Both the position numbers and the translations under genes were made by a program. From Ruegeria halocynthiae (GTDB taxonomy: Bacteria; Pseudomonadota; Alphaproteobacteria; Rhodobacterales; Rhodobacteraceae), in NCBI RefSeq assembly GCF_000743705.1, contig NZ_JQEZ01000002.1:1-41248 (forward strand): a stretch of 41,248 bases of DNA, in the 5' to 3' direction. The notes under the pieces are model-generated. The model did no database searches, had not been told where the DNA came from, and was given only the letters and a program-made list of their open reading frames with translations. Position 1 is the first letter of the stretch. Each line of letters begins with the position of its first letter. Shown in pieces: positions 7,149 to 24,673 of this stretch.

Positions 7149-9101
7149 ATGGACCAGGTTTTTGTGTCCTACACGCATAAGAACAAGGCACTTGTCGAGC
7201 CGGTTGTGAAGTTTCTTAAGTCGCATGGATTGTCCGTTTATTGGGACAATCAATTAAGGCCCGGAGAATGGGAACCTCAGCTGGAACAGAAGATCGCGGC
7301 CTCGGAAGTTTTCATTATCTTTGTTACGCGCGACATCCTGGACCCGCGCGAAGACGGCTCGGGAACAAGTTACGTCTTCAATGAAATCAACATGGCGATT
7401 GACGCCGGGATCAAGTATATCTTTCCCATCATCGTAGGCCGGATATCGCTGAACAACGATTTCGAGCAGCTCAGCCGGTTCCATGGGCTGAAGGTCGATG
7501 CCATCGAGGATGTGGTCGCCTCACAGGAATTTTGGGGCCATGTCAAATCCTTCAAGGCATACATAGAATCTGGTGGGCGGGCATCGGAAAACCTGCCGAC
7601 CCATTCCGCCGATGCAGATATGGTCGGCTGGCCGGTCGCGGGTGACAATCTGGTCGAGCGTCAGGCGCTTGCACTGGCCGTGATGCTGCTTGAGGGAGAG
7701 CAGCCCTTTTTGATCAATGATGCGGCCAAATGGCTGCAAAAGCTTATAGAAGATAAGCTGCGCCCGATGACGGAAGAAGAAACCAACGCCCAGCCCCGGG
7801 TGTTCGGGGGCACCGGTCAGAGCGCCTTGCTGGACAGCATCGGCGCTCAACGTCTTGTGCCCGAAGCCGGTAACAACAGCGGTGTGCAGTTGCTGGAATT
7901 CAAACGGCCGGGACATGCGGCGCAGTTGCTTCAATACCTGTGGTCCGAGCAACCCGAAGTCCGATCGCTTCTGGTCGATTGGTTGCAGCGCATATTCGAA
8001 AGCGATGATCACAGGTCGCTGGCGCTGCATCTGGGTCGGGGATTGACCCACCTAGCGCGGATCGATCTTGCGGGTCTGGAATATGAGATGCTGTGGCGTT
8101 TTGTGCGCGCCCCTTTCTCGCACAATGAATTGGTTGTGTTTTCCCAATTGCTTGCCGCGGCCTATGACGAACCCAAAAACCGCCAACGCGTCTCCCAAAT
8201 TCTGGACCGAGTGTATCAGGGCGAGTGGCTGGAACCGGGAGAGGGGCGTGCTCTTGCCATCATCATCGCGCTGGACGCATTGGCCGAACGCAGCCCCGAG
8301 CCTGCCGTAAAGCTGCTGAGAAAAGCCGACAGCTACGTGCGTGCGTCAGGAAAGGCCGGACACAGTTTGCGCAAGGCGATCCTGCACAGCCCTGTGCTGT
8401 GCGGCTCGAAGGAAAGCACTGTCTCTTCGGCGGAAACCCATATCGCTATGGCCGAAGAAGATGTGGCAGAAAAATCAAAGGATACCAGCCCGGACCTGCC
8501 CGAGACTGAGGTCGAGGTCAGCGAAGCGGCGGACGACGCGGCAAAAGACGAGGCTGCAACAGACGATACGGTTGAGGGTGAATCCGCTGAGGATACGGCC
8601 CGCAATAGCAACAGCACCTACTCCGCGCAGTTTCTTGTGGCCTTGGCCAAATGGATAGATGAACCGATTTCGGACAGAAAAAAATTGATCCGTCGCCAGT
8701 TTCCGTTGTGGATGTTCATGTCGGCGTTCCAACGGATGCCGCTGTATAGAAAGAGCGCACCCGATCTTCTGACACTGGAAGAACTGGTGGTTGATCTTGG
8801 CGGGCGCGACAGTGCCATTCTGGATCATATGGTCAATGGGTTCTGCCGCGCGGCGCTGGCAAAAGCCCAGCCGGGATCAGAGTATCGTGCGGTGCAGCAT
8901 ATGAATCTGGTCTGCCGATTATTTGCGCATGAACGAAAGAAAAGTGCGCACAGAAAAACCGGGGAAGATGATCCCTATCTGGTGTTCTTGCGGCGCTGCC
9001 ATCAGCAGATCATAGCCAGCGACACCGGACGCGAAGCGCACCTGCTGCGGGGCTGTCAAAAATACATGTCGGCGCAGGATATCTCATTCATTGTGGATTG
9101 A
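7149..9101 (+). CDS. TIR-domain protein
   Basis: A 650-aa cytoplasmic protein, first gene of a long operon. Residues 1-~130 form a TIR domain: the opening strand VFVSYTHKN, SVYWDNQLRPGEWEP near 29-43, and FIIFVTRDIL at 55-64. Glu79 in SYVFNEINMA sits where NAD-cleaving TIR domains carry their catalytic glutamate. Bacterial TIR domains of this type consume NAD or produce cyclic ADP-ribose-like messengers in immunity. Residues ~150-425 are helical and unrecognised, perhaps a sensor. About 426-488 is a highly acidic Ala/Glu/Asp/Thr linker, followed by a second helical domain to the end. No signal peptide or membrane segment is present. The next gene begins 15 bp later, behind an AAGGA site. It may be the intracellular effector of the envelope module downstream (inference). 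Confidence 0.8.
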   Translation: MDQVFVSYTHKNKALVEPVVKFLKSHGLSVYWDNQLRPGEWEPQLEQKIAASEVFIIFVTRDILDPREDGSGTSYVFNEINMAIDAGIKYIFPIIVGRISLNNDFEQLSRFHGLKVDAIEDVVASQEFWGHVKSFKAYIESGGRASENLPTHSADADMVGWPVAGDNLVERQALALAVMLLEGEQPFLINDAAKWLQKLIEDKLRPMTEEETNAQPRVFGGTGQSALLDSIGAQRLVPEAGNNSGVQLLEFKRPGHAAQLLQYLWSEQPEVRSLLVDWLQRIFESDDHRSLALHLGRGLTHLARIDLAGLEYEMLWRFVRAPFSHNELVVFSQLLAAAYDEPKNRQRVSQILDRVYQGEWLEPGEGRALAIIIALDALAERSPEPAVKLLRKADSYVRASGKAGHSLRKAILHSPVLCGSKESTVSSAETHIAMAEEDVAEKSKDTSPDLPETEVEVSEAADDAAKDEAATDDTVEGESAEDTARNSNSTYSAQFLVALAKWIDEPISDRKKLIRRQFPLWMFMSAFQRMPLYRKSAPDLLTLEELVVDLGGRDSAILDHMVNGFCRAALAKAQPGSEYRAVQHMNLVCRLFAHERKKSAHRKTGEDDPYLVFLRRCHQQIIASDTGREAHLLRGCQKYMSAQDISFIVD

Positions 9102-9116
9102 ACAGAAAGGACCGAA

Positions 9117-9971: not shown

Positions 9972-9991
9972 ATCCACCTTAAGAGACGAAT

Positions 9992-10414
9992 ATGCTTGGT
10001 TATCTTGTTCCTGATCCGCTGCAACGCCTGTTTGTTTCCCTGGTTGGAAGCTTGCCGTTGATACTGCAACAAGTGGGATTCGCCTTGCTGTGTGCGGGGT
10101 TTCTGCTTGTCATCTCCTACATCCTGCGGCTGGCGCTGCTGCATCTGGACGTGCATCTGGCGCTGCAGTCCCAGCGCCGGACCGAAAAGGTGTCGACCGT
10201 GGCCTACATGACCGGTTGGACCGGCAAGTGGCAATGGTGCGCGATTATTGGGGTCTGCGCCGTGATGCTGTCTGCGACGGTGGTGTTTTCGGTTATCCGA
10301 AGCGCCAAGCTGGACCCGGCCAGCCCGGCCTATTCTCTGGTCCGCACTGTGCAAATCTGCCTCGCGCCGAATTCGGGCAATGGCGATACCATGGCGCGCT
10401 GCCTGAAGCGATGA
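9992..10414 (+). CDS. Small two-helix membrane protein
   Basis: A 140-aa protein with two clear hydrophobic helices: about residues 20-50 (LPLILQQVGFALLCAGFLLVISYIL…) and 82-102 (CAIIGVCAVMLSATVVFSVI). Between them is a basic loop of ~30 residues (HLALQSQRRTEKVSTV). The C-terminal ~35 residues contain two cysteines and may lie in the periplasm. I recognise no family. It lies 20 bp after the SPFH-like gene and 71 bp before the vWA gene, in the same direction, so it is probably part of the complex. Confidence 0.6.
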   Translation: MLGYLVPDPLQRLFVSLVGSLPLILQQVGFALLCAGFLLVISYILRLALLHLDVHLALQSQRRTEKVSTVAYMTGWTGKWQWCAIIGVCAVMLSATVVFSVIRSAKLDPASPAYSLVRTVQICLAPNSGNGDTMARCLKR

Positions 10415-10430
10415 TCGTATCATACAAAAC

Positions 10431-10458
10431 TTGCGCGGTGAACAGAATCCCGTATCTT
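10431..10458 (+). promoter_or_regulatory. Possible internal promoter before the vWA gene
   Basis: TTGCGC at 10431-10436 and TATCTT at 10453-10458 are separated by 16 bp in the widest gap of the first half of the operon. They precede a GGAG ribosome site and the vWA start. This is a weak sigma70-like match only. Confidence 0.25.
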
Positions 10459-10485: not shown

Positions 10486-13044
10486 ATGTTTAAAGCCTTT
10501 TGTTCGGCGCTTTTTTTGGCGCTTTCCGCTCATATGTCCTTTGCTGAAGACTGCAACCCCACGACTTTGGCTGAGGGGGCAGAGCTGAAGACGGGCATCC
10601 AGAAGCTGCGCACCAAAGTCGACAAACTGACCAGCCGCGCGGAAGGGCAGATTTTTTCGATCCGGTCTCTGCCGGACTCTGTGCAAGAGCAGGTGCCGCC
10701 GCTTCCCGTTGCACCCGTGATGCCAGAGGGAATTCTGGGCGGGGATGGATCTTTGCAATGGAGCTGCGACGCAGACGGAAATCCCACTCCGACAGTCGCT
10801 GAGTATCAGGAACAGATCGATGGCTATGAGCAGGGCGTCGCTGCTTATGAAGCCGAAATTCAGAGCCGCGCCGACGCTATTGAAACCCTTGAACAGACCA
10901 ATGACACTGTCGCCGCGGATGCCAAGCCGGACGCAGATGATGGTGCAACCACCGAAAACAGCGAAGATTCCGGAGACGACGCCCAGATCGCTGAACAAGC
11001 CCCAGAAGATGGCACCGCGCAGGAATCCCAAGCTGCGCCCCAAGAGGCCGACGGTGAAAACAGCACTGTGGAACTGGCCGAAGAAACGCCAACGACGCCT
11101 GCACAGACGACCCCGATGTCTGCCCCTGACAATCCCAACCTGTTTCGCCGCGTGCTGTCGCTGCCCTCGGCCGTGATGAAGGCCGAACCGCGCGACGACG
11201 CCGACGAAAGCCCGTTGCCGACCTTTTCGGTGCTTTACGTGTTTGACGAAAGCCGCGCCAATGGGGGCGACTGGCTGAAGGTCAGCACCTCGTTGCGTGA
11301 AGGCACACAAGGGTGGGTAGAAGCGGATCAAACCCTGCGGTGGAGCAACATGTTGGTGATGGAGTTTGCACCAAAGGGCAAACGCAGCGATGTATTGTTC
11401 TTCCGGGACGATACAACGCTTTCGGATATTGTCGGGTCATTTTCCTATGCTGTTGAGGCAGGGGAAATCTATGAAAGCATTGATACCGAACGCAAACGTC
11501 TGTCCGGCGAGACAGGCTCAACCCCGAATTGGGATCAAAGACTGGTCGCGATGGAACCCGCCTCGGGCGTGACGTTTGGCAACCAGCCCTACCTTTTGCC
11601 GATCCTGGATTGGCGATCTGAGTTGTTTGACGGAACCATTGAAACCAACCTGCTGAAGGTCGCAGCCGTTCCTGCGGATGCCGAGGAAATCTCGGCAGAA
11701 GATTCCAACAGCTTTGACACCGATCTCAACAGCGCCGCCGAGCAGGACGGGGTGCTGCGTGTGGGCGTTGTCTTTGTTGTCGACACGACGATTTCCATGC
11801 GCCCGTTCATCGAGCGGACGCAAACCGCTATCCAGTCTTTCTATGACAGTTTCCAACAATTCGAGAGCGCCAGCTTCGTATCCTTTTCCCTGCTTGGCTT
11901 CCGGGACGAGGTGGAGCAGGCCGAAGGTGTTGAATATACCACCAAGCTGTTCCAGCCTCTCGACCCCGACGCCCCCGTCGAACAGGTTCTTGGAAACCTA
12001 AACCAGATGCAGGAAGCGAATTCTCCGACGGTTCAGTTTCAGGAAGACGGTTTGGCAGGCCTGATCGAAGCCATCGAGCGCAATGACTGGACACCATACG
12101 ATGCACGGTTGGTCGTCTTCATTTCGGACGCATCGATGCGGGCGGGCGAAGACCCGCTGGCCAAGTTTCCCGGCCATACCCCGAGCTCTGTGGCAGAGTT
12201 AGCGCGCAACAAAAATATCGCAATTTTGCCGATTCACTTGCTGACCCCGGCCAATCAGCGCAACGGAAACGCTGACATTGCGCGTCCGCAATACGAAACC
12301 CTTGCGGAGACAGGCGATATCAACAGCGAAAAATACTTTGCCCTGGACGCGACGGACCCGGATTCGTTCCTGAAACGGATGACGTCTTTGACCGATCAGA
12401 TGGCCCGGGCCATCTTTGACGTGAACGCGGGCAAAGTCCTGAGTGTCGATGATGTTCTGGAGCTTGAAGAGGTGCCCGAGGATGACGTTGCCGCCGCCGC
12501 AGTGAACGAGATTTTCCGGGCTCAGCTGGAGAGTCTGGCCTCGGTCTCGGATGGTAGCGCGCCCAGTTTTCTGGCTGGGTGGACGTCGGATCGTGACCTA
12601 TTGGACCCGAATCTTGAAACCCTTGAGGTCAAGGTTTTCCTGACCCGCAACCAGCTCAGTTCGCTGGACAAACAACTTGAAAGCATCGTTGACGCCTTCC
12701 GCAGTGGCGGGGATGACCCGCAAGCCTTCTTTGACAACCTGCAGGCACTGGCGGCACAGACGGCGACCGACCCCGATGTGGTGCACAACAATGACCGCGA
12801 AGCGATGCGGGCGATTTTGCCCAGCTTCCTGCAGAACCTGCCGTACCGCAGCGAGATTCTGTATCTTGACCTGCAGGACTGGAGCAGCTTGAGCCCGGCC
12901 TCGCGATCCGAGTTCATGGAGCAGCTGGACGCCAAGCGTAAATCCTATCAGGCGGTGTTCGAGCAAACGGACCTGTGGCACGACTTTGGCAGCAACGATC
13001 CGTTGCTGCAGGTCTCGCCGATCAGACTGTCGATCCTTCCATAA
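10486..13044 (+). CDS. Secreted vWA-domain protein with SH3-like region
   Basis: An 852-aa exported protein. A signal peptide is clear (hydrophobic core to about residue 20, ending MSFAED). Residues 30-140 are helical, probably coiled coil. About 138-212 is an acidic Ala/Glu/Asp/Gln/Thr linker. Near 215-290 is an SH3b-like segment (GDWLKVS…GWVEADQTLRW). A vWA domain spans about 425-640 with a MIDAS-type motif DTTIS at 433-437, after the strand VGVVFVVD. The C-terminal ~200 residues are helical. vWA domains bind protein ligands through a metal ion. Here the domain would act in the periplasm, probably as a sensing or scaffold subunit beside the ABC transporter encoded next. The ATG follows a GGAG site by a good distance. 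Confidence 0.75.
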   Translation: MFKAFCSALFLALSAHMSFAEDCNPTTLAEGAELKTGIQKLRTKVDKLTSRAEGQIFSIRSLPDSVQEQVPPLPVAPVMPEGILGGDGSLQWSCDADGNPTPTVAEYQEQIDGYEQGVAAYEAEIQSRADAIETLEQTNDTVAADAKPDADDGATTENSEDSGDDAQIAEQAPEDGTAQESQAAPQEADGENSTVELAEETPTTPAQTTPMSAPDNPNLFRRVLSLPSAVMKAEPRDDADESPLPTFSVLYVFDESRANGGDWLKVSTSLREGTQGWVEADQTLRWSNMLVMEFAPKGKRSDVLFFRDDTTLSDIVGSFSYAVEAGEIYESIDTERKRLSGETGSTPNWDQRLVAMEPASGVTFGNQPYLLPILDWRSELFDGTIETNLLKVAAVPADAEEISAEDSNSFDTDLNSAAEQDGVLRVGVVFVVDTTISMRPFIERTQTAIQSFYDSFQQFESASFVSFSLLGFRDEVEQAEGVEYTTKLFQPLDPDAPVEQVLGNLNQMQEANSPTVQFQEDGLAGLIEAIERNDWTPYDARLVVFISDASMRAGEDPLAKFPGHTPSSVAELARNKNIAILPIHLLTPANQRNGNADIARPQYETLAETGDINSEKYFALDATDPDSFLKRMTSLTDQMARAIFDVNAGKVLSVDDVLELEEVPEDDVAAAAVNEIFRAQLESLASVSDGSAPSFLAGWTSDRDLLDPNLETLEVKVFLTRNQLSSLDKQLESIVDAFRSGGDDPQAFFDNLQALAAQTATDPDVVHNNDREAMRAILPSFLQNLPYRSEILYLDLQDWSSLSPASRSEFMEQLDAKRKSYQAVFEQTDLWHDFGSNDPLLQVSPIRLSILP

Positions 13045-13054: not shown

Positions 13055-13795
13055 ATGAGTGCACCTGTGATGCTGCACATTTCGGGCCTGCACATTGTGC
13101 GACCGGGTCGGGGTGATGCGCCCGAATTCAGGCTATCGGTTCCGGAGTTTCAGGTTCCTGCGGGCGCACGGATCGGGCTGATCGGCGAAAGCGGCAGCGG
13201 CAAGACCAGCTTTCTTGAGCTTCTGGGCCTGCTCGCCTGGCCGGATGAGGTGGCCCGGTTCGATTTCAGACCGGACCGAACCATCGCTGCGGTCGATCTG
13301 ATACCGGCCCTTCTGGAGCGACGGACCAGTCAATTGGCGCAGCTCAGGGCACGCACGATCGGTTTCGTGATGCAGGATGGGGGTTTGCTGCCCTATCTTT
13401 CCGTGCGCGAAAATGCCCGGCTCAGCGCCCGGCTGTCCGGCGTGGGGCTGAATTCCGAACAGATCGCGGCCATGGCGGATGCCCTGGGTCTGGGACAGTA
13501 TCTCGACCGGTTGCAATCTGACCTTTCGGGAGGGCAGAAACAAAGGGCGGCAGTGTTGCGCGCACTGGCCGCCGGGGTCCCGCTGATGCTGGCCGACGAA
13601 CCTACGGCTGCGCTGGACCCGAAGACCTCTGAGGCCGTAATGACCGCAATCGTAAAGTCGACCGATGCGGTTGCGGCCACTCAGATCATCGCCAGCCACA
13701 ACGCCCCGCTGATTGAACGTCACGGGTTCGAGCTGTTCCGCGTCACCGTGACGGAAGGCGACACCTGGCGCCATGCAACACTGGAGGCCGCATGA
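13055..13795 (+). CDS. ABC transporter ATP-binding protein (LolD/MacB type)
   Basis: A 246-aa ATPase with all hallmarks: Walker A GESGSGKT (44-51), Q-loop Gln107, signature LSGGQ (157-161), Walker B LMLADEP (177-183) and switch His215. The ATG at 13055 is chosen because the frame upstream lies inside the vWA gene and this ATG follows its stop by 10 bp. The next gene, an FtsX-type permease, overlaps the stop by four bases, so the two form a transporter of the MacB/LolCDE/FtsEX class. Such transporters act as mechanotransducers that move lipoproteins, toxins or peptides across the periplasm, or activate periplasmic enzymes, rather than as classical importers. Confidence 0.9.
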   Translation: MSAPVMLHISGLHIVRPGRGDAPEFRLSVPEFQVPAGARIGLIGESGSGKTSFLELLGLLAWPDEVARFDFRPDRTIAAVDLIPALLERRTSQLAQLRARTIGFVMQDGGLLPYLSVRENARLSARLSGVGLNSEQIAAMADALGLGQYLDRLQSDLSGGQKQRAAVLRALAAGVPLMLADEPTAALDPKTSEAVMTAIVKSTDAVAATQIIASHNAPLIERHGFELFRVTVTEGDTWRHATLEAA

Positions 13796-15021
13796 CCCGA
13801 ATAAGGTGGTCACAGGTTCTCAACCTGGCCTTTCGTGACCTCGCCCACGGGTGGGGTACCACCTTGTGTTTCAGTGTCGCGGTTGCCGCTGCGCTGCTGC
13901 CATTGCTGATCCTTTTCGGTCTGAAATACGGCGTGGTCAGCAACCTGATCGAAACCCTGCGCGGTGACCCGAATGTCCGCGAGATCAGGCTGGTGCGGGA
14001 TACGCAATTGTCTCCTCAGTGGTTTGAGACCATCGCGGCCCGTGACGATGTGGAATTTATTCTGCCGCGCGGCAATTTCCTTGCGGCATCCGTGCGCTTG
14101 CGAAGCCCGGACGGGCGGCAATTGCTGGATACTCGAATGGTGCCGACGACAGCGAATGATCCCCTGATCATCGGCATCGCCCCGCCTCAGGGTCTGAGCG
14201 AGATCCTTGTCACCACTCGTGTCGCCATCGAAGCGCAGATCGAGGTTGGCAACACGGTCGAACTGATCATCCAGCGCACGGTGGGCGAAGACCGTCAGGC
14301 TGTTCGACATCGGGCGAAGGTTGTCGGCATACTGCCGCGCGATCGATTGCAGACCGACGATATATTCGTGACCCCTGCATTTGAGGACGCGGTGGAAACC
14401 TGGCGTCAGGGTTTTGCCGTGCCGCCGTTGGATTGGGTCGCGCGGGATGGATCCCGCACCCTGCTGCGGCCCGAGCGCAAGAGCTTTTCAAGCTTTCGCC
14501 TGTATACACGCGATGTGCGCGATGTCCCCGTGTTGCGCGACGCCCTGCTGTTGGACGGTCTGGATGTGCGCACCCGTGCCGAAGACGTCATTCGTGTGCT
14601 GATCATCGAACGGGCACTGTCCATCGTGTTCTTCGCCATTACCGTTCTTGGCGCCGTCGGATTTTTACTGACCCTAGGCCTTCATCTGTTGGCCAGCGTC
14701 TCAGAAAAAGCCCGCGAACTGGCCATTCTGCGGCTTTTGGGCCTGACAACGGCCGAGGTTTCCCTGATGCCTTCCATTCAGGGAATGGTCATATCGGGCG
14801 TTGGCGCGGTGATGGCCTGCGGGCTGGCCGCCATCTCGCAGCCGATTGTGAACACCGTTTTCAGTGGCCTGGGCGGGCTGGAAGGCCGCGTGTCCTATCT
14901 AGCCTTGTCTCATTTCGCAGTTGCCTTGGGGGCAACGGTACTGGCTGGAGGCGTGGCCGGATCAATCGCCGGGCTGCGCGCCACCACGATCGAACCCAGA
15001 AAAGGATTGCGCCATGATTGA
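13792..15021 (+). CDS. FtsX-like ABC permease
   Basis: A 409-aa integral membrane protein with the four-helix layout of FtsX/MacB permeases. One helix lies near residues 24-48, then a ~220-residue periplasmic domain, then three helices (about 275-300, 320-350 and 370-395). Between the second and third helices is the cytoplasmic coupling helix EKARELAILRLLGLT, a hallmark of the family (cf. 'R..eia.lralG'). It overlaps the ATPase gene by 4 bp and the FGE-like gene by 8 bp. The periplasmic domain is where the secreted vWA, FGE-like or lipoprotein products could dock (inference). Confidence 0.85.
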   Translation: MTRIRWSQVLNLAFRDLAHGWGTTLCFSVAVAAALLPLLILFGLKYGVVSNLIETLRGDPNVREIRLVRDTQLSPQWFETIAARDDVEFILPRGNFLAASVRLRSPDGRQLLDTRMVPTTANDPLIIGIAPPQGLSEILVTTRVAIEAQIEVGNTVELIIQRTVGEDRQAVRHRAKVVGILPRDRLQTDDIFVTPAFEDAVETWRQGFAVPPLDWVARDGSRTLLRPERKSFSSFRLYTRDVRDVPVLRDALLLDGLDVRTRAEDVIRVLIIERALSIVFFAITVLGAVGFLLTLGLHLLASVSEKARELAILRLLGLTTAEVSLMPSIQGMVISGVGAVMACGLAAISQPIVNTVFSGLGGLEGRVSYLALSHFAVALGATVLAGGVAGSIAGLRATTIEPRKGLRHD

Positions 15022-16996: not shown

Positions 16997-17806
16997 ATGA
17001 GTTTAAAAATTTGCAAACCCGCTTTGCGCAGGGGGACGGCCACATTAGCGCTTATGTCCATGGTAGCGCTTTCGGCCTGTGATGAGGCGATTACGCTGGC
17101 TCCGGGGACCATCGATGCAAGGGACAATTGCAGCAGCTTTCAGCAATCCATCGTGGACGCGCGGCAAAAAGCGAACAACCTAAAGGTTCAGAACGCCGCA
17201 CTTGGCGCTCTGGCAGGGGCCGCGATTGGTGCCGCCGTGACCGGTGACAGCGATGGTGCCCTGATCGGAGCGCTGATCGGCGCCGCCGCTTCGGGCGTGG
17301 CCACTGCGGAAACTCAGAAAAAGCAGCGCGCGGCGGATGCGGATACTCTGCGCAATGTGAACGCCAAGGCCGGTAGCGCCAATCAATTGCTGACGCAGGC
17401 CGGGAAATCCTCGGCGGCGCTGCGATCGTGCCGGCAAAAGCAAATCAAGTCGCTTGAACAGAAGGTTCGCACCGGCGCGATTAGCAATCAGGCAGCCCGG
17501 TCAGAGCTTACCGTGCTGAAACGGCGGGCATCGGTCGACAACCAGATCATCTCGGCGTCGTTCAACGGCATCGGGAACCGGGTCGATAATTTTGTCCGCA
17601 CAGGGGCGCAGGCCAGTGGGGTCGAGCAGGCCATCATCAGCCGCCAGGCCGCCGCGAAAACCCAACAACAGCGCAACGCGCGCGCAGCGACACCAAACGT
17701 GTCCCGTGCGAAATCCAACCAGGCCAAGCTGGTCGAGGCCGATGCGCGGTCGCGGGCGAGCATTGATCGCAGCCTGGATGCCATCGATGTATTGCTGAGC
17801 GGATGA
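16997..17806 (+). CDS. Glycine-zipper lipoprotein
   Basis: A 269-aa predicted lipoprotein: basic N-terminus, hydrophobic core and lipobox VALSAC with Cys28. The residue after the lipidated cysteine is Asp29, a signal that in enterobacteria keeps lipoproteins in the inner membrane. Residues ~70-100 are a glycine zipper (AALGALAGAAIGAA … GALIGALIGAAASG), which can insert into or pack within membranes. The rest is helical and Ala/Gln/Arg rich, with a coiled-coil tendency. A good AAGGA site precedes the ATG. It overlaps the protease gene by four bases. It could anchor the periplasmic complex or form a membrane-spanning oligomer (inference). Confidence 0.75.
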   Translation: MSLKICKPALRRGTATLALMSMVALSACDEAITLAPGTIDARDNCSSFQQSIVDARQKANNLKVQNAALGALAGAAIGAAVTGDSDGALIGALIGAAASGVATAETQKKQRAADADTLRNVNAKAGSANQLLTQAGKSSAALRSCRQKQIKSLEQKVRTGAISNQAARSELTVLKRRASVDNQIISASFNGIGNRVDNFVRTGAQASGVEQAIISRQAAAKTQQQRNARAATPNVSRAKSNQAKLVEADARSRASIDRSLDAIDVLLSG

Positions 17807-19248
17807 GGCATCTCATCTGTCTGTTGCAGGCCGGGTTTCTGGCCTGCATGACCGCTGGCGGGGCCTGGTCGGACCCGCCGGCCAAGTTGCTGCGCGAACT
17901 GGGCCTGGCGCCAGTGGCACGGGCAGATCAGAACGTGGTGTCAGCGCAGTTGGATCTGTCCTGGATCGGGCTTTATGACGGGCGGCTGGACGGGCTGAAC
18001 CGAGCCGGTCTTAATCAGGCCATACGCCAGTTTCAATCCAGCCTTGGAAACGTGCCAACCGGCCGGTTATCCCCCGAGGAGCGCCGTACATTGTCCCAGC
18101 GTGCAGATGTTTCGCGGGCAGGGTATCGGTTCAGGAAACAGGACATAGACTGGCTTGGGATGTCTGCGGTCCTGCCGTCGGCGCTTATGGATGCGCCGCA
18201 GCTGGACAAGGACTCACCGGACCTGCTGCTGTTTCAGGGCACGCATCATTCCGGCCTGACATTGCGACTTTGGAGCATGGATGTCTCCGGCTCGGACCCG
18301 GCGATAACGATGCGCGTCATCCTTAAGCAACTTGAAAAACAGGACCCCGCGCCAGAGGTCATAACCTCGAAATCCGGCAGGTCCGGTTTTGCGATCGCGG
18401 CAAAGGGCGGCGGCGTCCGGTCGGTCTATCTGGCCGATATTCGAAATGGCGCGCTTCAGTTGGCCAAGCTGTCGTTGTCCAGCAACACCTATGATGCGAT
18501 GCGCCCGGTCGTGGCGCATATGCTGAACGGGCTTGAGCTGTTCGCCGGTCCCCGCCTGTCCTCGGACGAACGCCGTAAACGCATTGCCAGAGGCGATGAT
18601 CCTGTTGGTGAAACCGTCCCGGGTTGGTTCAGATCAATGATCGGCAATGGCTCGGGCTCGTTGGTTACGCGCGACGGGCATGTATTGACGAACTGGCATG
18701 TGGTCGAAGGGTGCGGCAGCCTGACGGTCAACGGAACCCCGGCATCCCTGTTGGGCACGGATGTGCGCCTGGATCTGGCGCTTTTGCAGGCACCGGCCTT
18801 TGCCAACAAACGCCCGATCCGGTTTCGTGCGGATAACCCGCAGCTGGGGGAAACGGTGGCTGTCATGGGCTTTCCGGTGTTCCGATATTCCCGTGCCCTG
18901 AATTTCACCCGGGGGTCGGTTTCATCGACGGTTGGCCTGTACGGAGATCGGACTCGTGTACAGATTACCGCGCCCATCCAGCCGGGCAATTCCGGTGGTC
19001 CGGTTCTGGACACCAACGGTCGGCAGGTTGCCGTTGTGGCGGCCAAGGCAAACACCGCCTGGCAGGAGGCCGACAACATAGAAAATGTCGGTTGGGTCAT
19101 ACGCGGGAAAAACGCGCTGGCCTTTATGAAACAGTTCGACGTTGTCCCGATTGTTGAAGAGCACGCCGCCGCCGCACAGTTTCCCAGCCCCGAAAAAATC
19201 GACCAATGGCGCGCGGCTATTGTCAGGATAGAATGCCATCTGCCCTAA
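17803..19248 (+). CDS. Secreted trypsin-like (DegP/HtrA-type) serine protease
   Basis: A 481-aa exported protease. The signal peptide ends near residue 23. Residues ~40-105 resemble a peptidoglycan-binding or other small helical repeat (…LDLSWIGLYDGRLDGLNRAGL…). A middle beta-rich domain spans ~135-245. The S1C-like protease domain covers ~275-445, with the triad His299 (TNWHVVEG), Asp324 (LDLALL) and Ser397 (PGNSGGP). No PDZ domain follows, unlike DegP. It is last in the nine-gene run; its start overlaps the lipoprotein stop (ATGA). A periplasmic protease controlled by the vWA/FGE/ABC complex would suit proteolytic signalling or an executioner role (inference). Confidence 0.85.
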   Translation: MRHLICLLQAGFLACMTAGGAWSDPPAKLLRELGLAPVARADQNVVSAQLDLSWIGLYDGRLDGLNRAGLNQAIRQFQSSLGNVPTGRLSPEERRTLSQRADVSRAGYRFRKQDIDWLGMSAVLPSALMDAPQLDKDSPDLLLFQGTHHSGLTLRLWSMDVSGSDPAITMRVILKQLEKQDPAPEVITSKSGRSGFAIAAKGGGVRSVYLADIRNGALQLAKLSLSSNTYDAMRPVVAHMLNGLELFAGPRLSSDERRKRIARGDDPVGETVPGWFRSMIGNGSGSLVTRDGHVLTNWHVVEGCGSLTVNGTPASLLGTDVRLDLALLQAPAFANKRPIRFRADNPQLGETVAVMGFPVFRYSRALNFTRGSVSSTVGLYGDRTRVQITAPIQPGNSGGPVLDTNGRQVAVVAAKANTAWQEADNIENVGWVIRGKNALAFMKQFDVVPIVEEHAAAAQFPSPEKIDQWRAAIVRIECHLP

Positions 19249-19251: not shown

Positions 19252-19716
19252 TCAGGACTTCTGCGTCTCGAATTCTTTGACATGCGCCTTGAGCGTTGCG
19301 ATGGCACGTTCGGCAGCCAGAATGTCCTTTTGAATCTGCGCGGCCTCGCGGTGATCAATCCGGCCATCACTCAGTGCAATCTCGACCTGTGCTGCTGCCT
19401 CGGACGCATCGACGATCATGCGGATCACCGAGTGGCGCAGGCTTTCTCTTGCGTCCAGGTCGGGCTGATCCAGCGCGCCGCGCTCGGCTGCGAAAAAGCC
19501 CGTGCCCAAAAGCAGCCAACTGGCGATCCTTGCATCCGGCAGAACCGCGATGAGGCTTCTGATTTCTTCCGGCGAGAACACCACCCGGTTGCGCAGCCGG
19601 GCATAAAGCGCGTCGTAGGACAGCCCCATTGAATTGGCGATTTCAGCGGTGCGGCCTCGTTCATCTGTTACCAGCAAACCATGAACAAGATTTGCAAACT
19701 CCTGACCGCGCCGCAT
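19252..19716 (-). CDS. Small HTH protein, phage CII-like
   Basis: A 154-aa soluble protein. The N-terminal half (about 8-75) looks like the CII/CP76-type helix-turn-helix of phage regulators (…AEIANSMGLSYDALYARLRNR…FSPEEIRSLIAVLPD). The C-terminal half is helical, ending in a coiled coil (ILAAERAIATLKAHVKEFE). It lies at the 3' end of the minus-strand run, 57 bp after the VirD4-like gene. Its stop is only 3 bp from the stop of the protease gene that converges on it. It may regulate one or both arms of the locus; no operator can be assigned. Confidence 0.6.
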   Translation of the reverse strand: MRRGQEFANLVHGLLVTDERGRTAEIANSMGLSYDALYARLRNRVVFSPEEIRSLIAVLPDARIASWLLLGTGFFAAERGALDQPDLDARESLRHSVIRMIVDASEAAAQVEIALSDGRIDHREAAQIQKDILAAERAIATLKAHVKEFETQKS

Positions 19717-19773: not shown

Positions 19774-21105
19774 TCAGTACCGGTGAATCGTCTCGGCCCG
19801 CGCCGGGCTAAGCGGTGCCAGACGCGACAGGTCCCGAAATCTTTCCATCTCAAAAAAGCGTTCCAGATTTATCAACTGACCTTCACGCCCTGCCAGATGC
19901 AGCAACGCCAATCGGGGCTTTAGTGGTTTATAGGCCCAGCCGGGAAACCCCAAACGGTCCGCAAACTGTCTTTGCGCCGCCATATTGTGAAACCCAAAAC
20001 CGCAGATCGTGGCCGTGTTGTTGAGGATCGTCGCATTGGATTTGGGATAGCGCGATGCGATCTGTTCCAGATCCTGCCAAAAGCTCCACAGCCGGACGCC
20101 ATATCCGCGCATCAGGGTTGTGACGGTTTCCAGTTCGGGCAGATAGCCTAGGTGCCACGCCTCATCGATCAGAAAAAGCGTTTCGCGCGGAGGCAGGGCC
20201 ATTCTGGTCTGAAACAACGAGATCATCGCCCCCAGCCAGACCCGCAACAACGGCGCGGCGTTTTTCAGACGATGCGGCGGCACAACGATATAAACCGAGA
20301 TATTGTCCCCCCGAACCAGGGCATCGGGGTCAAAGGTGGTTTTTGTAATCGAGCTCTGAAGCAGGCCGCTGGAAAACACGGGCATCCACCGCTGAGCGGT
20401 AGAAACGATCGAGGCTTTTACCTTTGCCTCGGCCCCCGACAGCTGTGACAGCGCCCGGCGTATGACGGTGTTCCCCGACCGTCGGCAATCCTTCATCGTA
20501 AGGTCAAAGTCCTTGCCCGGCTGCATTGCCTGATAGGCGACCTCGGGCAGGTTCCTCAGCCCGTGCGGCATCTCTCCGCAGACATATGCGACTAGATCGG
20601 CGATCATCTGTGTCGCGCTTTGATCCCAGAACGGATCGCTGACGGACCGTTCTGGTGCAACGCGGTTGGCCAGCGCATAGCAGTCCTCTTGAAAATCGGG
20701 GCGGTTGGGGTCGATCAGGTCAAGCACGTTGAAGGCCCCGCTTTCCTCTTCGGGAAACATCGCGAATGGGTCCAGCAGGACCGTTTCATGCCCCATGTCC
20801 CGTCGCGCCTGTGCCGTTGTCGCCCAAGCCTCACCTTTGATGTCAAGAACAACCGTCGGGCCCTGCCAGCTCAGCAGGGCAGGGATGAGGTGGCTTGCGC
20901 CCTTGCCTGATCCGGTCGGCGCGACCGAGATGATGTGCCCTTCACGATGAGGGGTAATCCAGTCCGGGGGCGCAAAATGCCCGACCTCACCCGCACGCAG
21001 AAACCCGGCCGGTTTGTCGAGTCTCTTCGGCACGGCGCGCCCAAGGGGCAGTTCCGGCAGGTCTTCCCCGGTTTCAGGCGAATTGGCTGGTTTAATCTTT
21101 TGCAT
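19774..21105 (-). CDS. VirD4/TraG-like ATPase without membrane anchor
   Basis: A 443-aa protein of the type IV coupling-protein family. It has Walker A APTGSGKGAS (~residues 61-70), the sequence VVLDIKGEAW that follows it in VirD4/TraG proteins, a Walker B FLIDEAWHLG (~300) and the late block GYGVRLWSFWQDLEQI. Coupling proteins normally start with two transmembrane helices and exceed 550 aa. This one begins almost directly at the ATPase core and no hydrophobic segment is visible. No relaxase or type IV secretion gene is present in the window. It has a good ribosome site (AGGAG). It follows the channel-like gene by 114 bp. A DNA- or protein-pumping role in the defence-like locus is conceivable; a truncated conjugation relic is the alternative. 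Confidence 0.8.
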   Translation of the reverse strand: MQKIKPANSPETGEDLPELPLGRAVPKRLDKPAGFLRAGEVGHFAPPDWITPHREGHIISVAPTGSGKGASHLIPALLSWQGPTVVLDIKGEAWATTAQARRDMGHETVLLDPFAMFPEEESGAFNVLDLIDPNRPDFQEDCYALANRVAPERSVSDPFWDQSATQMIADLVAYVCGEMPHGLRNLPEVAYQAMQPGKDFDLTMKDCRRSGNTVIRRALSQLSGAEAKVKASIVSTAQRWMPVFSSGLLQSSITKTTFDPDALVRGDNISVYIVVPPHRLKNAAPLLRVWLGAMISLFQTRMALPPRETLFLIDEAWHLGYLPELETVTTLMRGYGVRLWSFWQDLEQIASRYPKSNATILNNTATICGFGFHNMAAQRQFADRLGFPGWAYKPLKPRLALLHLAGREGQLINLERFFEMERFRDLSRLAPLSPARAETIHRY

Positions 21106-21219: not shown

Positions 21220-23547
21220 CTAGATCAAGAGGGCGGGGCCCTTGTCCAGCCTGGTCCAACGGTCAATCCCGCGTTGCGTCCAAATGGAGTCCGGCTGGTT
21301 CTTGAAAATCATGTCGTCGGCAAGGGCCATGACGGCATCCTGAACCTCTTTGATGACCGTATCGTACTGTTCCGGGTCCTCGGATAGTTCCGTATCCGAC
21401 ACGCCCAGCGGGCGCTGGTCGATCTTGCGCAGCAAATGCCCATCGGCTTTGAGAGCGATCAGAGATGAGCGCTGCGCGGCCACTTCCGCCGCAATCGCGT
21501 TATAGGCCTCTTGCGTATCGACACGGGTTCGAAGGTGCTGCAGCGCAATCGTGTCTATCGTGGATACGCCTGCCGCAAGGACGGACAAAATCCGTGCGGG
21601 CCGGCCGGTCTGTGTCTTCCAAGCCTGCGCCAAGGCGACCGCCGCCACCCGATCAAACCCCGGCGCATCAGGCGTTATGATCTCAAGGTCAATGGCATCG
21701 GGTGAGGACAGGGCGCTCAGGTGGTTTTTCAGAAGGCTGGCAATGGCCTGAGTCGTTTCCGACGCATCCACCTGCAACGGGCCGATGACACCGACACGCC
21801 AGCGCATACGCCAGCACGGAAGCGTTATTTTGTCCTGAAACTGCTCGATCCCTTCGTTCAGGCTTTCTTCAACGTTTTTTTCGTCTTTCTTTTCATGCCC
21901 CTCCCCAAGAGCCACAAGCGCGTCATAGGGCAATATCAGACGATGGCGCTTTTTCTCATTATCTCTGTGGCCATCGGTCTTGCGCCAGGCCTCAAGCAAC
22001 CGCTCGACATTCCATCTTTCGTGTTCGGTTTCCGCCAGCACTCGGATCAGATCCTTGTCCGCCAGCACGGCTTTGCCAGCCGAAGCCTGAAGCCTCAATC
22101 CCGCTACCCGTGACCCGATGGGCGATACGAGACCCGCCGCCAAAAAGATATCAATGGCCGAGAGAGCCGCGCGATAGCTTGCGCGTTTTTGTGCATTCGA
22201 CATTTTGGTCCAGTCGTTCCCGTCATCAGGAACAACATCAGAAGACTTGCGCCAACGCTCGTGTATGGCGCGTGCCAGTTTTTGGTACAGTTTATTCAGC
22301 GCGATGTCGTCTTCATCAAGGCTGCGCCCGCCAAAGGGTACGATTCCGCCTGTCAAATCGTCAAAAGCGGCGGCGGAAATCGAGGCCAGTGAATCGCTGC
22401 GCATAAAGATCGGCGCCTTTACACAAAGCTGCTCTTGCTGCATCTGACGCAAACGCATGGCAATCGCGGCGTTTCGGACATCTTCGCCGGCCGCGACCAC
22501 CACCGCAGTAATCGGATTTTTGTTTTCTTGCTGCAAAAGCTTGTCCGCCTGGCCTTCGGCGCAGCATTCAAGGGCATCCATCCCCACAAAATTGATTTCA
22601 AGATGCCCGGCCAGGTCGGGATTGAACAAAGCGGGCCGTTCACGCCTGACCCGTGCTTTCGCCTCGTCCGGTTTGTTGTCCACAATGGTCAGTATCGCAG
22701 GCCCCAGCCGTGGATGATGACAGCGCAAGGCCAGCTCCTCGGCGACGGCTAGATTAATGCTCCCGAGGCCGACCAGAACAGCGTGCACGCGTTCCTGACA
22801 TCTGGTCAGGGCAAGTTCGTTCGGCGCGATCGATGTCACCAGAGCCCGCGCGATTGTCTCGGACCGAGAAAACAGTGTGGCCTGAGCGAAGATATCAGAC
22901 AGCAGCTGCAAATCGCGCAGGATTGATGCGTCCTCGATCCGCAAGGCCAGTTTTGCATTTGGCGCACGATCCGTTTGCGAGCGCCAGACGCGAGCTCTTT
23001 CGACATTCAGAACCGCGTCGGCGTCTCCGAACACGACCGTATCGGGCGTGCCGATCAATGCGGATGTTCCGGTCTTTTCCGTGATCCGCCCGGCGATCTT
23101 CAGCAAATGGGCCGAGCGACGGTACACGGTCAGTTTTTCCAGGTTCTCGGCACTGTCGAACACAGTGATCAGCCCTTTGTCGCGGTACATATCCAGAGCA
23201 AAGTTGGACACGCCGATCATGACGATATGCCCTTTACGGAAATAGGCCCGCAGTCGGACGAACTGGTCGCCAAGGTAAACGGCGGCCAGACCGATCAGGG
23301 CAGAAATAGTTGTGAACAACCCGGTAAAACGGGCGACTTCGATCCACAGGTTCAGGGGCGGCAGATCCGGTTCGCCGATAAAGCTGCTGTCGCCGACAAA
23401 CGCCAGAAGCGTATGATAGGCCACGTCGAAGAAACTGAATCCGTCAAGCTCGGCATAGTACTGCGACCAACCGATGTAGCCGGTCACGCATGTGATGGCG
23501 CAAAGAGCGAGAAGAACAAGGATTGTAATCGGGAAACGGGTTTTCAT
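21220..23547 (-). CDS. 2TM channel-like protein with Rossmann, RyR and SLOG-like domains
   Basis: A 775-aa membrane protein. A first helix (~6-28), a pore-loop-like re-entrant segment (~38-58, without a TVGYG filter) and a second helix (~69-95) look like a two-TM ion channel. Two Rossmann-like segments follow (HIVMIGVSNFA ~107-117; VHAVLVGLGSINLA ~254-267), resembling TrkA-N/RCK gating domains. RyR-type motifs appear as ARAIHERW (~425-432) and, more completely, AETEHERW … RHRLILPYDAL (~505-544). A C-terminal region (~584-660: VGVIGPLQVD … ITPDAPGFDRVAA) resembles SLOG/LSDAT nucleotide-binding domains. RyR and SLOG domains are proposed ligand sensors in bacterial conflict systems. The start ATG overlaps the patatin stop (ATGA), so lipase and channel are co-translated. 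Confidence 0.75.
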   Translation of the reverse strand: MKTRFPITILVLLALCAITCVTGYIGWSQYYAELDGFSFFDVAYHTLLAFVGDSSFIGEPDLPPLNLWIEVARFTGLFTTISALIGLAAVYLGDQFVRLRAYFRKGHIVMIGVSNFALDMYRDKGLITVFDSAENLEKLTVYRRSAHLLKIAGRITEKTGTSALIGTPDTVVFGDADAVLNVERARVWRSQTDRAPNAKLALRIEDASILRDLQLLSDIFAQATLFSRSETIARALVTSIAPNELALTRCQERVHAVLVGLGSINLAVAEELALRCHHPRLGPAILTIVDNKPDEAKARVRRERPALFNPDLAGHLEINFVGMDALECCAEGQADKLLQQENKNPITAVVVAAGEDVRNAAIAMRLRQMQQEQLCVKAPIFMRSDSLASISAAAFDDLTGGIVPFGGRSLDEDDIALNKLYQKLARAIHERWRKSSDVVPDDGNDWTKMSNAQKRASYRAALSAIDIFLAAGLVSPIGSRVAGLRLQASAGKAVLADKDLIRVLAETEHERWNVERLLEAWRKTDGHRDNEKKRHRLILPYDALVALGEGHEKKDEKNVEESLNEGIEQFQDKITLPCWRMRWRVGVIGPLQVDASETTQAIASLLKNHLSALSSPDAIDLEIITPDAPGFDRVAAVALAQAWKTQTGRPARILSVLAAGVSTIDTIALQHLRTRVDTQEAYNAIAAEVAAQRSSLIALKADGHLLRKIDQRPLGVSDTELSEDPEQYDTVIKEVQDAVMALADDMIFKNQPDSIWTQRGIDRWTRLDKGPALLI

Positions 23548-24673
23548 GTCTCTCCCAAGCAGTTGGCAAGCAATGCTTTTATGTCCAATGCCCTGTCAAT
23601 GTAGTCAAAGGTCAGGTCATAGATTGGTGCAATGATGGCCGGGTCGTCAATACTTTGATATCTATTGAGTTTTTTCTGCGCCACATGAATGCCGACCTTT
23701 CTTAGCTCATCTTGTGCAAGCGGCAGATCAAGCCTGAGATACGTAAACGCCGGATCGCCGCACAGATTGTCACGGTCCAGATCGCCAATCTCCGAAATTA
23801 TCGGGATCGGGCGCGGGGACGTACCCAGCCATTGTATCATCGCGACGGTATGCAGCTCGGAATCATGGGTCATGCAGCGCAATGCGTAATATGCAAGGGG
23901 CAGGGGACCCAGTCTTTTGGCGATGCCGGCATCCAGTCTGGGGCGGAAATATCCCGACCCCAGCGACAAAATTAACATCCGGTCCGCCCCGGTTGGCCAT
24001 TCCAGACCATAGACCCGCAAGCGCGCCAGCTTCAATAGAACAAGGCTGGGATCATTGTGCGGAGACAACCCGCCATCCACAAAAGTGCCTGTCACACCGC
24101 CTCCGATTTCGATCGTGGATTGGTCGAAATAGGTTGGGGCCGCCGTTGCGGCGCGCAGCAATCGGGACACCTGAAAATGACGGTTGGCAATATGGTCGCT
24201 GTCTTCTTTTCATTAAAATACGGCGCTGTATCGATTGTGCTTATGATCCAGCGACTGCCAGTGTCCAGCCGCTTGGTGACAATGGCGCAATGGGTTCGAA
24301 ACCCGGGGTCGCCCAGCGTCGCATCCCCGACAACCGCCTTAAGCTCTGCTTCCAGTTTGTCGCCGTCGAAGGCCGCGACATGCCGCATGATCGGCAGCCA
24401 ACGGCGTTTTTGAAAAAATGCCGCTGCCCGTGTGAGGTAGAAATGCTTTACCTCTTCTAGGGGAACCCCACGCGACAGGGCCACCGCGATCAGGGCCCCG
24501 GTCGAAGTGCCGCCGATCAGATTGAAGACATCGCAAATTCTGGTATCCCGGCCAAGGTGATCCTGCAGCGCGCTTTCGATGGCTTCCAGAAATGCGACCT
24601 CGACAACGCCATGCACACCACCACCAGACAGCGCCAGAATACGCTTTTGCCGGGTGGCATCACCGGTCAACAA
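23544..24673 (-). pseudogene. Patatin-like phospholipase, interrupted by a one-base frameshift
   Basis: Two overlapping reading frames together make one patatin. The 5' part (from a TTG at 24673) has the oxyanion loop LSGGGVHG and the nucleophile motif GGTSTG. The 3' part has ANRHFQVSRLLRAATAAPTYF and the catalytic Asp motif VDGGL. Frames join if one base is added in a short A run (T run 24207-24210 on the plus strand); the product would then be 376 aa. The break separates the serine from its aspartate, so the gene as read is inactive. A sequencing or assembly error at the homopolymer is equally possible. Patatins cleave membrane phospholipids and serve as effectors in several anti-phage systems. 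It is first in the minus-strand operon. The TTG start is uncertain. Confidence 0.8.

What the first reader, a model, noticed from the sequence alone, without database searches (positions are those of the whole stretch)
7149..24673. Candidate undescribed envelope-sensing defence/conflict island with two convergent arms
A nine-gene plus-strand run (TIR, SPFH-like, small TM, secreted vWA, ABC ATPase, FtsX permease, secreted FGE-like, lipoprotein, secreted trypsin-like protease) meets a minus-strand run (patatin, channel-RyR-SLOG-like, VirD4-like ATPase, HTH). Gaps and overlaps within each arm are very short. TIR, patatin, RyR/SLOG and AbiE are all known immune or conflict families, but I know no described system with this set. 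Seen: gene order, motifs, overlaps. Inference: periplasmic subunits sense envelope damage or a phage receptor event, and the transporter passes it to cytoplasmic TIR and membrane lipase/channel effectors.
Basis: partly seen in the sequence, partly recalled or inferred. Interest (0 to 1): 0.88.

Follow-up and report, generated by a model that had tools for sequence, protein, structure and literature searches.

The report
Envelope-damage sensor wired to TIR
On a bacterial plasmid-like replicon, and again in a second genus, genes related to a known outer-membrane damage sensor sit in one nine-gene run with a TIR protein predicted to destroy NAD+, so an injury to the cell envelope would likely make the cell shut itself down.

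Summary
The gene run is real. All nine plus-strand genes recur in the same order in a second genus of the family (G858, locus L207; 18-55% identity), again followed by a convergent channel-RyR gene. Six of them (vWA, ABC ATPase, FtsX permease, FGE-fold protein, glycine-zipper lipoprotein, protease) form a trans-envelope cassette. Four of these are homologous to genes inside a T6SS cluster of Tistrella, beside a Ser/Thr kinase and a PP2C phosphatase: the layout of the TagQRST/PpkA sensor of outer-membrane damage. Elsewhere the cassette follows SrfB/SrfC genes (69 of 80 loci), a kinase (3 of 80) or a tubulin-like gene. Here its output position holds a TIR / SPFH-like / small-membrane-protein trio, which also stands alone in Tistrella; a TIR + membrane-anchored SPFH-like pair occurs in Rhizobium. 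The putative catalytic TIR glutamate is invariant in six relatives. The T6SS sheath gene was not found in either genome with the full run. Corrections: patatin is split over two frames, SLOG is unsupported, and VirD4, HTH and patatin are not shared with G858. Coupling of sensor to TIR is inferred from conserved adjacency in two genera; nothing was tested at the bench.

The parts
7149..9101 (+). TIR protein, 650 aa: N-terminal TIR domain with Glu79, long C-terminal region of unknown fold; predicted NAD+ hydrolase effector
   Evidence: PF13676 8.6e-13; profile matches SARM1 TIR 3.3e-9 with Glu79 on the WVHKE glutamate; E79 invariant in 6 of 6 aligned relatives, window included; homologue in G858 28%/656 aa
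9117..9971 (+). SPFH-like protein, 284 aa, no transmembrane segment by hydropathy
   Evidence: no Band-7 match in Pfam; homologues beside TIR in G858 (30%/275 aa) and Tistrella; Tistrella copy aligns to a membrane-anchored SPFH-like protein next to a TIR gene in Rhizobium, blastp 2e-10
9992..10414 (+). small membrane protein, 140 aa, two hydrophobic regions
   Evidence: hydropathy; counterparts of 129 and 136 aa at the same place in G858 (1.2e-6) and Tistrella
10486..13044 (+). secreted vWA protein, 852 aa: signal-like N-terminus, about 200 aa extension, vWA core with DxTxS at Asp433; counterpart of the PpkA sensor domain
   Evidence: D433 and S437 invariant in 9 sequences; 48%/866 aa to G858; 31% to the vWA of the Tistrella T6SS locus, 4.9e-71
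13055..13795 (+). ABC ATPase (TagT-like), 246 aa; Walker A, signature and Walker B motifs present
   Evidence: PF00005 5.1e-21; motifs; 44% to Tistrella T6SS-locus ATPase, 3.1e-46
13792..15021 (+). FtsX-like permease (TagS-like), 409 aa
   Evidence: PF02687 3.8e-9, weak LolCE match; 30% to Tistrella T6SS-locus permease, 6.9e-24; 55% to G858
15014..16972 (+). secreted FGE/SUMF1-fold protein (TagR-like), 652 aa, without cysteine at the FGE active-site motif, so likely not an oxidase
   Evidence: PF03781 4.1e-18; no Cys in the printed RGGS region in 12 of 12 homologues examined, of 33 with an FGE gene in hand; 33% to Tistrella T6SS-locus FGE, 3.2e-33
16997..17806 (+). glycine-zipper lipoprotein (TagQ-like), 269 aa, lipobox LSAC followed by Asp
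   Evidence: Gly-zipper families 7.9e-7; NCBIfam TagQ 1.5e-6 but 27.8 bits against a cut-off of 300; CDE at the lipobox shared with G858
17803..19248 (+). secreted PG-binding + trypsin/HtrA-like protease, 481 aa, His/Asp/Ser motifs present
   Evidence: PF01471 9.5e-7, PF13365 8.8e-23; NWHVV, DLAL, GNSGG
21220..23547 (-). RyR-channel protein, 775 aa: hydropathy peaks at 7-25 and 74-92 (weaker at 256-274, 460-478), TrkA_N-like region, RyR domain, C-terminal region of unknown kind; convergent partner
   Evidence: RyR 1.2e-7; RyR solved structures 4.3e-11; hydropathy; 33%/754 aa to the convergent G858 gene
23544..24673 (-). patatin-like phospholipase gene split over two reading frames (24092-24673 and 23544-24170); predicted non-functional as read; not shared with G858
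   Evidence: PF01734 2.6e-16 on the first part; both parts match PADLOC phospholipase effectors, 5.6e-29 and 5.7e-6; undivided homologue in a Sinorhizobium plasmid
19774..21105 (-). VirD4/TraG-like ATPase, 443 aa, no match in the G858 island; recurs near RyR in Sinorhizobium plasmids
19252..19716 (-). CP76/CII-like HTH regulator, no match in the G858 island
   Evidence: PF06892 7.3e-13; no match in L207-L209

Best explanation
The nine-gene arm (7149-19248) is a conserved gene run, found again in a second genus, that joins a six-gene trans-envelope cassette whose core is homologous to a T6SS-linked module of TagRST/PpkA-vWA type to a TIR / SPFH-like / small-membrane-protein trio, and it likely works by passing an envelope-damage signal to the TIR protein, which is predicted to hydrolyse NAD+. 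Shown: gene order, homologies, conserved motifs, no T6SS sheath gene found in either carrier genome. Inferred: (1) a breach of the envelope (phage entry, rival weapons, peptides) is registered by lipoprotein, FGE-fold protein and vWA protein, with the ABC/FtsX pair as the relay and the PG-binding protease gating the signal; (2) the small membrane protein and the SPFH-like protein receive it at the inner membrane and assemble the TIR proteins; (3) assembled TIR cleaves NAD+ and the cell stops or dies before the attacker profits; (4) the convergent RyR channel, with its TrkA_N-like region (a nucleotide-binding type of domain, recalled), is a second, membrane-directed output that may respond to the changed NAD pool.
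For: Nine genes plus convergent RyR in the same order in G858, another genus of the family. The two vWA proteins are sisters in the tree (88/76), inside a clade of seven with extended vWA (100/99), next to a cassette without trio. The core four genes lie in a T6SS cluster between PP2C/kinase and VgrG in Tistrella, 30-44% identical to the window's. PpkA is described as carrying an extracellular vWA sensor domain whose end of the protein TagR contacts (PMC3224232, passages), and TagQRST/PpkA as sensing outer-membrane damage (PMC11881912, passages). The cassette has exchangeable outputs: SrfB or SrfC in 69 of 80 loci, a full-length kinase in 3 of 80, a Tubulin_2 protein in Tistrella. In several Srf-type loci the coupler gene before vWA matches only the C-terminal, membrane-side part of the Tistrella kinase, as if cytoplasmic heads were swapped on one envelope module. 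The TIR-SPFH-membrane trio recurs intact in Tistrella; in Rhizobium a TIR relative is followed by one protein with membrane hairpin plus SPFH-like domain, in a TIR/SLOG cluster. E79 invariant in 6 of 6. VipB not found in G000 or G858; found in 3 of the 10 genomes searched. The trio differs more (18-30% identity) than the cassette (43-55%) between the two carriers, as expected of a conflict module.
Against: Trio and cassette also live apart: trio alone in Tistrella, six-gene cassette without trio in L015, L016, L017, L210, L211. Only 1 of 92 other cassette loci scanned has the trio (L010 and L018 are the same locus, and some loci are cut by contig ends). The junction between trio and cassette is the widest gap of the run (71 and 82 bp). 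The window's vWA clade lacks the upstream coupler or kinase of other lineages, so how the signal crosses the inner membrane is unknown. One six-gene genome, G1038, does have VipB. TagQ likeness of the lipoprotein is weak, and Asp after the lipid cysteine would keep it at the inner membrane by the E. coli rule (recalled). The window's vWA was not compared with a PpkA kinase-vWA fusion protein. AlphaFold models of TIR and SPFH-like proteins were poor (mean pLDDT 45 and 40).
Confidence: 0.55

Rival explanations
1. Two independent units stand side by side in a mobile island: a stand-alone TIR/SPFH/membrane immune trio and a stand-alone envelope cassette, each with its own trigger, with no signal passing between them.
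For: Each occurs without the other; widest gap of the run at their junction in both carriers; the G858 island lies beside tRNA-Phe and the window's on a replicon with repC and an integrase, places where modules pile up.
Against: Same order, strand and similar junctions in both genera although the trio has diverged to 18-30% identity; none of the 20 terminator-like or 4 promoter-like sites listed lies in the 71 bp gap, though such matches are at chance level overall; the trio stands where other lineages carry the cassette's output genes.
Confidence: 0.27
2. The trio guards the cassette: the six-gene cassette does envelope upkeep, and the TIR trio fires when the cassette is damaged or blocked by an attacker, rather than receiving a normal signal from it.
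For: The cassette is kept without the trio in relatives (L015-L017, L210, L211); the vWA tree fits addition of the trio to an older cassette.
Against: The cassette's best-understood homologues are signal relays with outputs, not known upkeep genes; no data on a guard contact.
Confidence: 0.12
3. The run is a damage-repair or stress-adaptation pathway in which the TIR domain is a scaffold or signalling enzyme, with no role in phage or rival defence.
For: TagQRST-type modules answer to envelope damage in general (PMC11881912, passages); PADLOC gave no system for the ten proteins scanned.
Against: TIR keeps the glutamate in 6 of 6 relatives and is closest in the PDB to the NAD+ hydrolase SARM1; the Rhizobium relative sits among TIR and SLOG genes.
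Confidence: 0.1

Closest known systems
TagQRST-PpkA/PppA threonine phosphorylation pathway of the H1 type VI secretion system (Pseudomonas aeruginosa)
   Same: vWA sensor, ABC ATPase, FtsX permease, FGE-fold periplasmic protein, glycine-zipper lipoprotein; a cassette of this make-up sits in a T6SS cluster with kinase and phosphatase in Tistrella
   Different: no kinase, phosphatase, Fha or T6SS gene in the run; extra PG-binding protease and vWA extension; TIR/SPFH/membrane trio in the output position
SrfABC-TagQRST-PpkA neighbourhood (described mostly without T6SS genes in host-associated Deltaproteobacteria, PMC3608642, passages read)
   Same: same sensor cassette used with an output other than T6SS; commonest form in our survey (SrfB or SrfC in 69 of 80 loci)
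   Different: output is SrfABC plus a bitopic coupler (k339); no TIR or SPFH-like gene of the window's kind in those loci
Thoeris and other TIR NADase defences (one abstract and listings only)
   Same: TIR domain with the glutamate, predicted NAD+ or cyclic ADP-ribose chemistry
   Different: no ThsA (SIR2-SLOG or macro-membrane) partner; a trans-envelope cassette next to it
Zorya (ZorA/ZorB envelope motor defence)
   Same: the minus arm of the G858 island has a MotA/ExbB-family gene with faint ZorA likeness (1.6e-3, 17.4 bits against a cut-off of 500) upstream of the RyR channel gene
   Different: no such gene in the window; TIR and Tag-like cassette are not parts of Zorya (recalled)
MoxR-vWA (VMAP) ternary conflict systems (PMC7159879, passages read)
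   Same: vWA, FGE-fold, trypsin-like and TIR domains used together in conflict systems
   Different: those centre on a MoxR AAA+ protein and a vWA protein; here vWA, FGE-fold protein and protease are predicted secreted and no MoxR was found

Membership tests
TagQRST-PpkA T6SS sensor module | TagT ABC ATPase with TagS FtsX-like permease | tested here: met
   PF00005 and PF02687; 44% and 30% to the ATPase and permease in the Tistrella T6SS locus
TagQRST-PpkA T6SS sensor module | TagR: periplasmic FGE-fold protein | tested here: met
   PF03781 4.1e-18, 33% to the Tistrella T6SS-locus protein; hydrophobic N-terminus
TagQRST-PpkA T6SS sensor module | TagQ: outer-membrane lipoprotein | tested here: inconclusive
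   lipobox and glycine zipper present, TagQ model 27.8 of 300 bits; Asp+2 argues for the inner membrane (recalled rule)
TagQRST-PpkA T6SS sensor module | PpkA: Ser/Thr kinase fused or paired with the vWA sensor | tested here: not met
   vWA present, but no kinase match among the 30 window ORFs scanned
TagQRST-PpkA T6SS sensor module | a T6SS to switch on | tested here: not met
   VipB (PF05943) not found in G000 or G858; found in G069, G1038, G784; other T6SS genes not searched
Thoeris | ThsB-type TIR protein | tested here: inconclusive
   TIR present, PADLOC ThsB match only 3.7e-5
Thoeris | ThsA effector (SIR2-SLOG or macro-membrane) | tested here: not met
   no SIR2, macro or SLOG match among the island's genes
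CBASS | CD-NTase cyclase next to effector | tested here: not met
   no CD-NTase match among the 30 window ORFs scanned with Pfam; only the split patatin resembles phospholipase effectors
MoxR-vWA (VMAP) ternary system | MoxR AAA+ ATPase partner of the vWA protein | tested here: not met
   no MoxR match; vWA is predicted secreted
active TIR NAD+ hydrolases | catalytic glutamate | tested here: met
   E79 aligned to the SARM1 WVHKE glutamate and invariant in 6 of 6; that this is the SARM1 catalytic residue is recalled
active TIR NAD+ hydrolases | NAD+ cleavage | not testable with these tools
   needs an enzyme assay
SPFH/Band-7 proteins | Band-7 domain | tested here: inconclusive
   no Band-7 match even at E 5; poor model; homologous to a membrane-anchored SPFH-looking Rhizobium protein

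The most novel reading that the evidence does not exclude
A retaliation sensor has been turned into a suicide switch: the TagQRST/PpkA-type outer-membrane breach detector, which elsewhere fires the type VI secretion harpoon, here drives a membrane-anchored SPFH/TIR assembly that burns NAD+, with a convergent RyR/TrkA_N channel as second executioner. It would be a TIR immune system that senses the wound rather than any molecule of the invader.
Probability: 0.42. Interest if true: 0.9.

Novelty: new variant of a known kind. Interest (0 to 1): 0.76.

Why it matters
TIR defences whose trigger is known to me are set off by phage proteins (for example capsid in staphylococcal Thoeris, PMC11312562, abstract); a TIR system carrying a dedicated trans-envelope damage sensor would have a trigger that does not depend on the attacker, close in logic to damage sensing in animals and plants. 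It would also show that the TagQRST/PpkA sensor is a portable input module whose outputs (T6SS, SrfABC, kinases, tubulin-like protein, TIR) can be swapped, which makes the unknown SrfABC operon and the unknown Tag signal testable in parallel.

Tried and rejected
One fixed two-armed system with patatin, VirD4 and HTH: rejected, since G858 keeps only the RyR gene of that arm. SLOG domain in the RyR protein: no support. k339/s270 couplers as homologues of the SPFH-like protein: a forced alignment gave 13-18% identity and a different layout, so dropped. Structure prediction of TIR and SPFH-like proteins: low confidence, so no fold search was made. DNA-level search of plasmids for the plus arm: no match; tblastn of plasmids with the G858 SPFH-like protein: none, with the G858 TIR protein: one, Rhizobium. 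SPFH-like protein in 5.8 billion proteins: only itself, then the Tistrella copy. TIR profile: window, two 50-51% relatives on 4.7-5.0 kb contigs without context, two weak hits (only 7996 candidates were scored). Viral contigs with TIR and SPFH-like alignments: none. Phylum search with the TIR alignment: 35 of 398 genomes match; apart from the window and G288 (a decayed gene), the listed matches cover only the TIR-domain part of the profile. TIR alignment in eight genomes with cassettes (L015-L018, G001, G006, G013, G027): two weak TIR-domain matches only. PADLOC and NCBIfam gave no system name. hhalign of three SPFH-like sequences with the Rhizobium protein was weak (E 0.087, probability 0.65%), against the pairwise blastp of 2e-10.

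Papers: passages only of PMC11881912, PMC12607579, PMC3224232, PMC3608642, PMC11797060, PMC7159879, PMC8195603 and PMC6653060 were seen, and the abstract and outline of PMC11312562; the rest are listings. That I know no paper on this combination rests on searches, in open-licence papers only; two searches found none, one and one (terms unrelated to each other there), one search matched 504 papers of which 15 were listed.

Full report
What was checked. The window is the start of an 892 kb contig of a 4.3 Mb genome and carries plasmid-type genes: a ParA-family ATPase at 2678-3988, a DnaA_N protein at 4338-5060, repC at 25095-26312, an integrase at 469-1545 (the ORF 1629-2681 beside parA had no Pfam match and is parB by position only). 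For two genes I take a later start than the longest ORF: the ABC ATPase at 13055 and the FGE-fold protein at 15014. Corrections are in the observation check: split patatin, no SLOG match, SPFH only by likeness.

The cassette. The vWA protein has relatives in 6 of 61 near genomes and 31 of 374 genomes of the family, the window's own genome counted in both, and in 125 plasmid records, 114 of them Klebsiella. A scan of public genomes confirmed 250 loci and kept the best 80. In these 80, vWA, ABC, FtsX and FGE genes are all found in 73; SrfB or SrfC in 69; a TIR or SPFH-like gene of the window's kind in none; a full-length kinase match in 3, all Chromatium. Some loci are cut by contig ends. In Tistrella pTM1 the cassette lies inside a T6SS cluster right after a PP2C phosphatase and a Ser/Thr kinase, and its vWA, ABC, FtsX and FGE proteins are 31, 44, 30 and 33% identical to the window's. 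That is the layout of PppA/PpkA with TagT, TagS and TagR. Published passages say that PpkA has an extracellular vWA sensor domain and that TagR interacts with the C-terminal part of PpkA (PMC3224232), and that the TagQRST-PpkA pathway senses outer-membrane damage (PMC11881912). A SrfABC-TagQRST-PpkA neighbourhood, mostly without T6SS machinery genes, was noted in 2013 (PMC3608642). So the cassette is a portable input module with several outputs; Tistrella (G069) has a second copy behind a Tubulin_2 protein. In the window's own genus, locus L011 has a further version with PP2C and two kinase-like genes and a protease. In several Srf-type loci the gene before vWA matches only the C-terminal, membrane-side part of the Tistrella kinase, as if different cytoplasmic heads sat on one envelope module.

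The trio. TIR, SPFH-like and small membrane protein genes recur in this order in Tistrella mobilis (G069, L113; species name) with no cassette beside them. A Rhizobium plasmid has a related TIR gene followed after 7 bp by one protein with a membrane hairpin and an SPFH-looking domain, near other TIR genes and a SLOG cluster 3 gene. Membrane piece and SPFH-like piece being one protein there suggests that they act together here (inference). The TIR domain matches SARM1 best among solved structures, with Glu79 on the WVHKE glutamate, and Glu79 is invariant in six relatives.

The two together. In the family search with the TIR alignment, 14 of 384 genomes matched; only the window's genome and G858 have an intact, nearly full-length match, one (G288) is decayed, and the rest match in the TIR domain alone. 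In G858 the TIR gene heads the same nine-gene run, and the next gene is a convergent RyR-channel gene. Identities to the window: TIR 28, SPFH-like 30, small membrane protein 18, vWA 48, ABC 49, FtsX 55, FGE 53, lipoprotein 44, protease 43, RyR 33%. Junction gaps are alike. G858 is another genus, its island lies beside a tRNA-Phe gene, and none of the window's AbiE, RepC, VirD4, HTH or patatin genes matched in 46 kb around it. Profiles of the three trio proteins against 8842 ORFs of 93 loci hit only G858 and the trio-only Tistrella locus, both of which are in the profiles by construction, apart from one 0.025 hit for the small protein in L044; thus 1 of the 92 other cassette loci has the trio (L010 and L018 are one locus). 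On the vWA tree (34 rows) the window and G858 are sisters (88/76), next to G803, which has the six-gene cassette without trio (95/92), within a clade of seven (100/99). The simplest reading is an older six-gene cassette to which the trio was added once; loss in G803 is also possible. The window's genome and G858 are 2 of the 31 family genomes with a vWA match; how far the two family draws (374 and 384 genomes) overlap was not checked.

No T6SS. The sheath gene VipB is not found in the window's genome or G858; of ten genomes searched, three have it, among them G1038, which carries the six-gene cassette. So the cassette is unlikely to serve a T6SS in its two trio-bearing carriers; for G1038 that is open.

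The minus arm. The RyR protein has two strong N-terminal hydropathy peaks, a RyR domain (1.2e-7) and, in its G858 homologue, a TrkA_N match above cut-off. In G858 its upstream neighbours are a MotA/ExbB-family gene and small membrane or secreted proteins. In three Sinorhizobium plasmids a distant relative (23%) occurs with patatin and VirD4-like genes within about 9 kb (in one, L213, the VirD4-like gene is in two pieces). In the one scanned (L212) the gene before RyR is a DUF7779/TPR protein with weak NB-ARC and AAA matches below cut-off. So RyR channels of this kind keep company with immune-type genes, but patatin and VirD4 go with RyR rather than with the plus arm. The window's patatin is split over two frames and, as read, predicted inactive; an undivided homologue exists in Sinorhizobium.

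How it would work. Shown: homology, order, motifs. Inferred: the lipoprotein, FGE-fold and vWA proteins register a breach; the ABC/FtsX pair relays it; small membrane and SPFH-like proteins gather TIR proteins at the inner membrane; TIR destroys NAD+; the RyR channel adds a membrane effect. The weakest step is the crossing of the inner membrane: other lineages have a coupler or kinase with one hydrophobic segment directly upstream of vWA (k339, s270, kinase), and here only the small membrane protein stands there. In the five cassettes of the same clade without trio I saw no adjacent coupler match either, so a signal path without it must exist or those copies use distant partners.

Verdict. I call it a new variant of a known kind: a Tag-type envelope sensor cassette with a TIR output. 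No function has been shown.

Noticed in passing
5117-6723 (-): AbiEii toxin / DUF6088-AbiEi-like pair just upstream of the island; no match around the run in G858, so not part of it.
   Followed up: partly
1629-5060 and 25095-26312: Two replication-type modules on one contig: a ParA-family gene with a DnaA_N protein at the left and a lone repC right of the island, as if replicons had fused.
   Followed up: no
26474-30325 (+): Two DUF4178 proteins followed by a spermine/spermidine-synthase-domain protein, in a tidy run next to the island.
   Followed up: no
L154 (G069:C2:240000-258000): Tistrella has a second vWA-ABC-FtsX-FGE-lipoprotein cassette behind a 1000 aa Tubulin_2 protein and a coupler-like gene: another output of the same sensor.
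   Followed up: partly
L009 and L020-L094: SrfABC-k339-vWA-ABC-FtsX-FGE-lipoprotein is a well-kept long operon in Pseudomonas, Enterobacterales and Halomonas relatives; the vWA gene is on 114 Klebsiella plasmid records (one of these opened, L009). Its function is unclear (PMC3608642).
   Followed up: partly
L035, L047, L049, L051, L054, L055, L062, L071, L083: The coupler gene before vWA matches only the C-terminal part (about residues 275-471) of the Tistrella kinase: kinase and coupler seem to share the membrane/periplasmic tail with different heads.
   Followed up: partly
L212-L214: Sinorhizobium plasmids with patatin, VirD4-like and RyR-channel genes together, and (L212) a DUF7779/TPR protein with weak NB-ARC match before RyR: a possible separate immune cluster.
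   Followed up: partly
L215 7854-14827: Rhizobium sp. NZLR1 plasmid cluster with several TIR genes and a SLOG cluster 3 gene next to the TIR + membrane-SPFH pair.
   Followed up: partly
L147 9969-11120: Decayed relative of the long TIR protein in G288, interrupted by stops, with no trio partner or cassette match beside it.
   Followed up: yes
30878-31471: GNAT acetyltransferase ORF that also matches a DUF772 transposase domain, perhaps a fusion at an insertion scar.
   Followed up: no
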